A DNA stretch of 64,000 nucleotides from the NCBI RefSeq assembly GCF_024227435.1, contig NZ_CP100445.1:248001-312000 (forward strand). The letters are read 5' to 3'. A model generated the notes under the pieces. It was given only the letters and a program-made list of their open reading frames with translations. It was not told the origin of the DNA and ran no database searches. Source of the stretch: Natrinema caseinilyticum. GTDB taxonomy: Archaea > Halobacteriota > Halobacteria > Halobacteriales > Natrialbaceae. This document shows positions 26,024 to 27,842 of this stretch, one piece after another. Each line of letters opens with the position of its first letter. Positions within the stretch are counted from its first letter, which is position 1. The translations under genes were made by a program, and so were the position numbers.

Positions 26024-26476
26024 ATGACTGACGACGGACCCGGTCCGGAGCGAGACGCCGACATCGCGGCGGGTATCGCGTCTGACGAGCGTCCCGTGAC
26101 CGTCGCCCTCGAGAACCGATTGATGAGCCACGGGATTTACGTTACCACCGCCACGTGAACGGGCGAGGCTGACCCGCCCGTCGACGACGGGACCGGATTA
26201 ACCCTCGAGTACGAAACCGTCTCCAACGCCACCGCGGTCACGAGCGACGAAGTCGGGGCGGTGGTTCGGGCGCTTCTTTCGATCGGTGACGAACGAGAGT
26301 GGACCCCGGGCCGACTCGATGCGACGTCACTGACGACCGACGGTACCGTCCGCGGACGGTGGCGCGTCGAGCGCGAGTGGTTCGAGCGACTCGGAACGGA
26401 GCTTTCGCAGGTCGAATTCTCCCGTCGCGTTCTCACAACTATCGAAAGTCACCGACGAGATCGGGACAGTTGTTGA
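26024..26476 (+). pseudogene. Small acidic protein gene interrupted by one in-frame TGA
   Basis: The frame from the ATG at 26024 runs 151 codons to the TGA at 26474, but codon 45 is TGA (26156-26158), directly after YVTTAT. The same frame remains fully open for the next 105 codons, with coding-like composition (LEYETVSNA, VVRALLSIGDEREWTPGRL, WRVEREWFERLGTELS). One C-to-T change (CGA to TGA) would explain it. A GTG at 26261 could restart the last 71 residues. It resembles small conserved haloarchaeal proteins of unknown role. A sequencing error is also possible. Confidence 0.7.
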
Positions 26477-26535
26477 ATGCGAACCGGGAGATAGATTAAT
26501 AATGACTCACACACCTGATTATTGTAGACTATCCG

Positions 26536-27174
26536 ATGAGTGGAGAACAGGTGTTCGTTTCACACGCTCCCGACGACCTCAGCCTCGTTCAGGACCTGTT
26601 CTCCACGGTCAAGAACTTCCCATTTGGCGTTCATATCACACTCGAGGAGATCGAATCGGGTCGCTTCCGAAAGCGACTCGAGGGTCGTCTCGCCAACAGT
26701 GACGTCGTCGTCGCCATCCTGACCGAGGACGCGACCGATAATACGTGGATCGACCAGGAAATCGGGTACGCGGTGGCCAAAGGGATTCTGGTGTTGCCGT
26801 TGAGCGACGAGGGGGTGAGTCGCCGCGGCTACATCAGCGACGTCGAGGGCGTGACGATCGATCGAAACAATCTCTCGTTTACCATCTTCAATCTCCTCTG
26901 TCGGTTGCGAAGCGAACTCGCACCACTAGGGGCGCTGTCGGTTCCGAACTGGTATATCCGGTTTCCGTGTACGGTCCCCGACTGCGGCCACCCGGTCACG
27001 CTCGAACTCGAGCAGGGACAGACGAAACTCTGGAAACTCCACGCCCACGGAAAATACCTGACGACGTCGTGTGAGGTTTGCGAGTCGACGTACTACTTCA
27101 ACCCGGCGACGATCGGATTCCTGGGTCGGGAAGACGGAATTAGCCGTCAATCGGCTTCCCGGAGCCGTTCGTAG
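26536..27174 (+). CDS. TIR-domain protein with C-terminal zinc ribbon
   Basis: This 212-residue protein begins with a TIR (Toll/interleukin-receptor) fold of the prokaryotic TIR_2 kind. It has strand A with VFVSHAPDD (residues 6-14), the BB-loop region, SDVVVAILTEDA, and WIDQEIGYAVAKG, where Glu75 sits at the NAD-cleaving Glu of TIR enzymes. Residues about 140-195 form a separate unit with C145, C150, C179 and C182, which look like zinc ligands. Bacterial and archaeal TIR proteins often cleave NAD+ or make signal nucleotides in anti-phage defence, so that role is likely but not shown. The zinc unit could sense nucleic acid or a partner. It lies between two genes that each carry a TGA. Confidence 0.8.
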   Translation: MSGEQVFVSHAPDDLSLVQDLFSTVKNFPFGVHITLEEIESGRFRKRLEGRLANSDVVVAILTEDATDNTWIDQEIGYAVAKGILVLPLSDEGVSRRGYISDVEGVTIDRNNLSFTIFNLLCRLRSELAPLGALSVPNWYIRFPCTVPDCGHPVTLELEQGQTKLWKLHAHGKYLTTSCEVCESTYYFNPATIGFLGREDGISRQSASRSRS

Positions 27175-27842
27175 GCGTCCGTGACGAGTTTAAACGCCGA
27201 CTTGCTCCCGCTTTTCGTGTCGGGATGGGCTCGTTTGACCTGGTCGTGAAACGCTGCTCGCAGTTCCTCGTCGGTCGCGTTCGCACTCACGCCGAGGATG
27301 TCGCGGGCCCTCGTCTTGCGGATGTCGACTGCGGCGACGACTCCTCGTTTCTCGGCCTCCGCTTTGCAATCGTGACAGAGCCACTCGGTGCGCTCGTCGA
27401 TGGTGGTGACGCGGAAGGGTTCCTCGGATGCGTGTTCGCGACACTGGCTACAGAGCGTTCAGTCGTCGGTTTCGTTCACATCCGGCGTGTCGCCCGAGTC
27501 GGTCTCCCCGGTCGACGCCCCACCGACGGAGCGGTCCGCATCGTCGCCGCTGCGGTCTCGCGCTTCGGCGACGCAGGTCGGACAGCAGGTGAGGGTAGTC
27601 CCGTCGTCGGGTACGACGTCCTCGAGGTCGATAAGAAGGACGGAGCGGGTGCAACCGTCGCAGTTGTCCCGACGCTGATCGAGTGATTCGCCCTTCCGTG
27701 CCGCGGCTCTGGCGTAGGGTTCGCAGTCCTGACAACAGACGACTCGTTCGCCGTCCGGCATCGTCACCGTCGTTCCGTTCTCAGGTGCAATCGTTCGGCT
27801 ACACCCTTCACAACCGGCGCGTCGGTCACCGACGACAGCCAT
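27147..27842 (-). pseudogene. Zinc-ribbon/J-domain protein interrupted by one in-frame TGA
   Basis: A single frame runs from ATG 27842 to the stop at 27147, broken only by TGA at 27459-27461. The first 127 codons hold three Cys pairs (GCEGC, CCQDC, CDGC..CCPTC) and an acidic linker ending NETDD. After the TGA come TLCSQC, a partner LCHDC and a J-domain (ARDILGVSANATDEELRAAF, then the HPD motif in RAHPDTKSGSK and FKLVTDAYERL). The second half has no start codon before the J-domain, so it must have been one protein of about 230 residues, a DnaJ-type co-chaperone with zinc ribbons. The TGA is a nonsense change or a sequencing error. Confidence 0.75.

What the first reader, a model, noticed from the sequence alone, without database searches (positions are those of the whole stretch)
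26536..27174. TIR-domain protein with its own zinc ribbon, unlinked to known defence genes
Seen: a TIR fold with a Glu (residue 75) at the NADase position, joined to a four-Cys unit (C145, C150, C179, C182). Known: prokaryotic TIR proteins act in Thoeris, TIR-Argonaute and related defence as NAD-cleaving enzymes. Inference: a single-gene TIR with a zinc sensor could be a compact defence or stress-death factor in a haloarchaeon. No ThsA, Argonaute or SIR2 partner lies nearby.
Basis: partly seen in the sequence, partly recalled or inferred. Interest (0 to 1): 0.7.

Follow-up and report, generated by a model that had tools for sequence, protein, structure and literature searches.

The report
Core archaeal TIR enzyme with zinc domain
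This gene makes a small protein that joins a TIR domain, of the kind that breaks down the cofactor NAD, to a zinc domain whose sequence resembles the oxidation switch of the bacterial chaperone Hsp33; relatives of it are standard genes of one family of salt-loving archaea and of many methane-producing archaea, so it is probably a stress- or metabolism-linked enzyme rather than an ordinary anti-virus island gene.

Summary
E75 and all four Cys are invariant in 34 diverse haloarchaeal relatives. The gene is not patchy or island-like: it is in 64 of 75 Natrialbaceae genomes, nearly always beside housekeeping genes (tpiA side), with a conserved promoter-like box and dN/dS 0.06-0.21, and is the only TIR_2 protein in 18 of 19 Natrinema genomes scanned. 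No copy was found in the phage or viral collections. The same two-domain protein (profile-profile E 1.5e-20, full length) occurs in 87 of 150 genomes sampled from a methanogen class; the 20 aligned keep the Glu and four Cys. The zinc domain is related in sequence to the Hsp33 redox-switch domain (profile E 7.5e-6 in the PDB; reverse search and Cys-preserving shuffles agree), though no structural match was found. Most likely: a chromosomal NAD-cleaving TIR enzyme regulated by its zinc domain, perhaps by redox. No activity was tested; defence is not excluded. I found no description of it in the papers searched.

The parts
26490..26504 (+). conserved promoter-like box GATAGATTAATAATG about 40 nt upstream of the ATG
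   Evidence: upstream regions of most relatives share this AT-rich box at the same distance; its use as a promoter is inferred
26536..27174 (+). TIR-ZR gene, 212 aa
26548..26919 (+). TIR domain, residues 5-128
   Evidence: Pfam TIR_2 residues 6-92; AF2 model and PDB matches
26746..26760 (+). WxxxE motif, W71 to E75 (putative catalytic Glu)
   Evidence: invariant in 34 diverse haloarchaeal sequences; Glu also invariant in 20 methanogen sequences, Trp not
26944..27135 (+). zinc domain, residues 137-200, Hsp33 redox-switch-like
26968..26985 (+). first Cys pair C145-x4-C150
   Evidence: invariant
27070..27081 (+). second Cys pair C179-x2-C182
   Evidence: invariant

Best explanation
It is a chromosomally fixed two-domain TIR enzyme found in several archaeal lineages (call it TIR-ZR). 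Inferred mechanism: the N-terminal TIR domain cleaves NAD+ (nicotinamide release, possibly with a cyclic ADP-ribose product in haloarchaea, where the WxxxE Trp is kept), and the C-terminal four-Cys domain, related in sequence to the redox-switch domain of the chaperone Hsp33, binds zinc and controls the TIR domain. In the simplest form, oxidants or zinc loss open the zinc domain and release TIR self-association and activity. Shown: architecture, invariant residues, fold of the TIR part, distribution, near-fixed neighbourhood in haloarchaea, purifying selection, Hsp33-domain sequence similarity. Inferred: NAD as substrate, zinc binding, redox gating, and a role in stress physiology rather than defence.
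For: TIR_2 above cut-off. Model matches TIR NADases: SPARTA Z 13.5, SARM1 Z 12.6, AbTir Z 12.3. E75 invariant in haloarchaea and methanogens; [quoted passage not shown] Zinc-domain profile against the PDB: Hsp33 1xjh E 7.5e-6 and 1i7f E 2.6e-4, next best 0.011. Reverse: an Hsp33 zinc-domain HMM ranks TIR-ZR 1-15 among 10,021 ORFs; all 36 TIR-ZR zinc domains beat the 95th percentile of Cys-preserving shuffles; profiles of two other local zinc proteins do not find Hsp33. Near-universal in the family and in similar gene order, dN/dS 0.06-0.21, one copy per genome.
Against: No activity, metal or redox data exist here. The fold alone fits deoxyribosyltransferases about as well (7o62 Z 12.7). Foldseek with the isolated zinc-domain model found no Hsp33 match, individual Hsp33-to-TIR-ZR scores are weak (best E 0.0057), and the first Cys pair (Cx4C or Cx2C) differs from Hsp33's CxC. 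The Trp of WxxxE is missing in methanogens. The gene is dispensable: 11 of 75 family genomes lack it and two congeners carry broken copies.
Confidence: 0.42

Rival explanations
1. A core antiviral or abortive-infection NADase: the zinc domain senses a viral nucleic acid or protein, or infection stress, and the TIR domain depletes NAD+.
For: Known prokaryotic TIR NADases are mostly defence proteins; best relatives in PADLOC and NCBIfam are Thoeris and retron TIRs. Lost or broken in some lineages, as defence genes often are.
Against: Nearly fixed place among housekeeping genes, near-universal in the family, strong purifying selection; no defence-specific gene among ten neighbours; none found in the phage and viral collections.
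Confidence: 0.2
2. A nucleotide-pool N-glycosidase (deoxyribosyltransferase or DNPH1-like) that cleans up damaged nucleotides; the TIR label reflects only the shared fold.
For: NDT 7o62 Z 12.7 and DNPH1 Z 11.7 rank with TIRs; sub-threshold Pfam NDT match over the Glu motif; housekeeping-like distribution.
Against: Pfam TIR_2 passes its cut-off and NDT does not; all 20 methanogen members match TIR_2, only 8 match NDT and weakly; PDB sequence-profile hits are mainly TIRs.
Confidence: 0.13
3. An RNA-directed NAD-cap remover: the zinc domain binds RNA and the TIR domain removes nicotinamide from NAD-capped RNA.
For: Archaeal TcpA and bacterial TIRs do this (PMC10937652); NAD-RNA occurs in Haloferax volcanii (PMC10663502).
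Against: The zinc domain is not basic (net charge about -4 to +2) and its best relative is Hsp33, not an RNA-binding ribbon.
Confidence: 0.1
4. A non-enzymatic TIR scaffold with a structural zinc ribbon.
For: Many TIR domains are scaffolds (general knowledge); Trp of WxxxE lost in methanogens.
Against: Glu kept in every aligned sequence of both lineages although the rest diverges to 25% identity.
Confidence: 0.12

Closest known systems
Prokaryotic TIR NADases (AbTir, BtTir, archaeal TcpA and TcpO)
   Same: TIR fold; WxxxE Glu, as in the bacterial examples aligned here
   Different: short and fused to a C-terminal four-Cys domain; nearly fixed chromosomal gene; activity not tested
Thoeris ThsB
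   Same: passes the Pfam ThsB_TIR cut-off
   Different: no ThsA-like neighbour; extra zinc domain; not in a defence locus
Hsp33 (HslO) redox-switch zinc domain
   Same: four-Cys domain with similar spacing before CxxC and significant profile similarity
   Different: fused to a TIR, not to a chaperone domain; Cx4C or Cx2C in place of CxC; redox response untested
Nucleoside 2-deoxyribosyltransferase / DNPH1
   Same: fold and Glu-containing motif
   Different: sequence match below the Pfam cut-off

Membership tests
TIR domain superfamily | sequence match above curated cut-off | tested here: met
   TIR_2 38.6 bits against 28; 20 of 20 methanogen members match TIR_2
TIR domain superfamily | TIR fold | tested here: met
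   Foldseek and VIA matches to TIR domains
TIR NADase | catalytic Glu of the alpha-C helix conserved | tested here: met
   E75 lies in predicted helix 70-81 and is invariant
TIR NADase | cleaves NAD+ | not testable with these tools
   needs an enzyme assay
Thoeris (ThsB) | encoded next to ThsA | tested here: not met
   ten neighbouring genes scanned with PADLOC, no ThsA; similar neighbourhood in most family loci
Thoeris (ThsB) | ThsA-like receptor elsewhere in the genome | tested here: inconclusive
   no STALD match in 29 genomes, but the control genomes did not ring either
SPARTA / TIR-Argonaute | TIR-APAZ fusion with short Argonaute | tested here: not met
   212-aa protein whose C-terminal part is the four-Cys domain; no Argonaute among the ten neighbours scanned
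Hsp33-type redox-switch zinc domain | significant sequence-profile similarity | tested here: met
   E 7.5e-6 forward, reciprocal ranking and shuffle control
Hsp33-type redox-switch zinc domain | same three-dimensional topology | tested here: inconclusive
   isolated domain model pLDDT 85, no significant Foldseek match to anything
Hsp33-type redox-switch zinc domain | CxC-x(about 30)-CxxC ligand pattern | tested here: not met
   Cx4C-x28-CxxC in haloarchaea, Cx2C-x27-CxxC in methanogens
Hsp33-type redox-switch zinc domain | zinc release and disulphide formation on oxidation | not testable with these tools
   needs biochemistry
Nucleoside 2-deoxyribosyltransferase | Pfam match above cut-off | tested here: not met
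   19.6 bits against 28.8

The most novel reading that the evidence does not exclude
A redox-gated TIR NADase: an Hsp33-type zinc switch that, on oxidation, turns on an NAD-consuming or cADPR-making TIR domain, kept as a chromosomal stress-response enzyme in haloarchaea and methanogens and used outside antiviral immunity.
Probability: 0.27. Interest if true: 0.8.

Novelty: new variant of a known kind. Interest (0 to 1): 0.58.

Why it matters
Most characterised prokaryotic TIR enzymes are antiviral or effector proteins (general knowledge). A TIR enzyme kept as an ordinary chromosomal gene across a haloarchaeal family and many methanogens points to a non-immune, possibly older, use of NAD cleavage, and its Hsp33-like domain suggests a specific trigger. 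Methanosarcina acetivorans, a genetically tractable species among the named control genomes, has a TIR_2 match, although I did not read that gene to confirm that it is TIR-ZR.

Tried and rejected
Defence-island reading: rejected as the default because of near-fixed synteny and near-universality. Phage, viral-contig and plasmid searches: no phage or viral match; one Natrinema 987-kb replicon carrying the same gene order, and four weak matches to other TIR proteins on bacterial plasmids. Literature on TIR with zinc ribbon, TIR in haloarchaea, methanogens or Methanosarcina, or TIR with Hsp33: nothing that describes this protein in the titles and abstracts returned. Foldseek and VIA with the zinc domain alone: no significant match. 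Early idea of a generic ribbon: halo-only and methanogen-only profiles gave only marginal Hsp33 hits (E 0.069 and 0.018); the combined profile was needed. Methanogen-only profile hits to designed TPR proteins are repeat artefacts. STALD search uninformative because its controls failed. Distance correlation was weak for TIR-ZR against TPI (r 0.33, against 0.76-0.79 for the hisC to MBF genes), so vertical inheritance rests on synteny, not on this test.

Full report
What is there. The window lies in a Natrinema-like haloarchaeal genome (G000, contig 1, 248001-312000). ORF 26536-27174 (+) encodes 212 aa. Residues 6-92 match Pfam TIR_2 above its cut-off, and an AlphaFold2 model built with 34 aligned sequences has pLDDT 81.5. 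The TIR part matches SPARTA, SARM1, AbTir and other TIR domains at Z 12-13.5, but also nucleoside 2-deoxyribosyltransferase (Z 12.7) and DNPH1 (Z 11.7), so fold alone does not fix the substrate. E75 lies in predicted helix 70-81 in a WxxxE motif, the motif on which NADase activity of most bacterial TIRs depends (PMC11374754). E75 and C145, C150, C179 and C182 are invariant in 34 sequences down to 44% identity.

Distribution in haloarchaea. Relatives are in 28 of 28 congeners (one frameshifted, one a fragment), 64 of 75 genomes of the family, 5 genomes of two other families, and no other genome of the 292 class genomes sampled. A Pfam TIR_2 scan finds this protein as the only TIR_2 protein in 18 of 19 Natrinema genomes scanned; one has a second. 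In most loci read, the order hisC - adenylate kinase - CDP-alcohol phosphatidyltransferase - MBF1-like regulator - tpiA - (small gene) - TIR-ZR is kept, often followed by a convergent zinc/J-domain gene; the two genomes of family f10 have another neighbourhood. In 11 family genomes the gene is missing while tpiA and its upstream genes remain. dN/dS against congeners is 0.06-0.21, and a box GATAGATTAATAATG about 40 nt upstream of the start is conserved in most relatives. None of this resembles a defence island; PADLOC finds no defence-specific gene among ten neighbours, and the phage and viral collections gave no relative.

The same protein in methanogens. A phylum search with the haloarchaeal profile found about 190-aa proteins matched over both domains. 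The ten full-length carriers that I tested all carry methyl-coenzyme M reductase, so they are methanogens or close kin. Aligned on their own (20 sequences), they keep the Glu and four Cys (Cx2C...Cx2C) but not the Trp. Profile-profile comparison with the haloarchaeal set gives probability 99.3% and E 1.5e-20 over the full length. Within the class of one of them, 87 of 150 genomes have a strong match (E below 1e-60). Their neighbourhoods differ from the haloarchaeal one and from each other; in four f33 genomes the gene lies upstream of what I read as a ribosomal protein operon. The protein therefore does not depend on one genomic partner.

The zinc domain. I found no Pfam or NCBIfam model that covers it above cut-off. 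A profile of 22 haloarchaeal and 14 methanogen zinc domains finds, among 177,635 PDB sequences, the Hsp33 redox-switch zinc domain first (1xjh E 7.5e-6; full-length 1i7f E 2.6e-4), clear of the next hit (0.011). Controls: an HMM of ten bacterial Hsp33 zinc domains ranks TIR-ZR at places 1-15 among 10,021 ORFs; the Pfam HSP33 model has its only match in two methanogen genomes inside TIR-ZR, at sub-threshold scores, while in two other genomes its weak best match lies elsewhere; all 36 TIR-ZR zinc domains score above the 95th percentile of shuffles that keep the Cys in place, and 89% above the 99th; profiles of two other zinc proteins from the same neighbourhood do not find Hsp33. Against: the TIR-ZR sequences are related to one another, so their ranks are not independent tests; no structural match; only the E. 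coli Hsp33 chains score significantly in the PDB, B. subtilis Hsp33 at 0.21; and the first Cys pair differs. I call the relationship likely but unproven. In 16 genomes searched, the domain occurs essentially only in TIR-ZR.

Mechanism. Most likely a chromosomal NAD-cleaving enzyme controlled by its zinc domain, with oxidation or zinc loss as a possible trigger. Hsp33's four reactive Cys are 232, 234, 265 and 268, and it is activated by oxidants (PMC8004198). The haloarchaeal Trp would favour a cyclic ADPR product, since W204 of AbTir is required for one, though Trp conservation is not decisive: TcpC keeps it and makes plain ADPR. NAD substrate, zinc binding and gating are inferences. Rivals are core antiviral NADase, nucleotide clean-up glycosidase, NAD-RNA processing and scaffold.

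Verdict. Observation confirmed. Interpretation partly supported: the catalytic-type TIR with a zinc unit is right and the sensor idea gains a specific lead, but the evidence points away from an ordinary defence gene.

Noticed in passing
window 26093-26473 (+): Small conserved family gene between tpiA and TIR-ZR has an in-frame TGA at 26156-26158 here; five other fetched loci also show an in-frame stop in it, two of them probably copies of the same gene.
   Followed up: partly
window 27147-27842 (-): Zinc/J-domain gene, a single annotated 226-aa protein in N. thermotolerans, is split in the window by an in-frame TGA at 27459-27461; no other fetched locus tested shows this. Its 3' end overlaps that of TIR-ZR by 28 bp.
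   Followed up: partly
L093 5852-6022; L094 and L068: TIR-ZR is decayed to a fragment in one congener (G023) and frameshifted in another (G024, Haloterrigena sp. H1).
   Followed up: no
G381 C1 352971-353144: A methanogen genome carries an extra stretch resembling the zinc domain alone, with an in-frame stop.
   Followed up: no
L117, L118, L119, L123: In these methanogen genomes TIR-ZR lies just upstream of a SPOUT-like gene and apparent ribosomal protein genes.
   Followed up: no
window 27147-27842 and TIR-ZR: The J-domain gene and TIR-ZR are often neighbours, but each occurs without the other in some genomes.
   Followed up: partly
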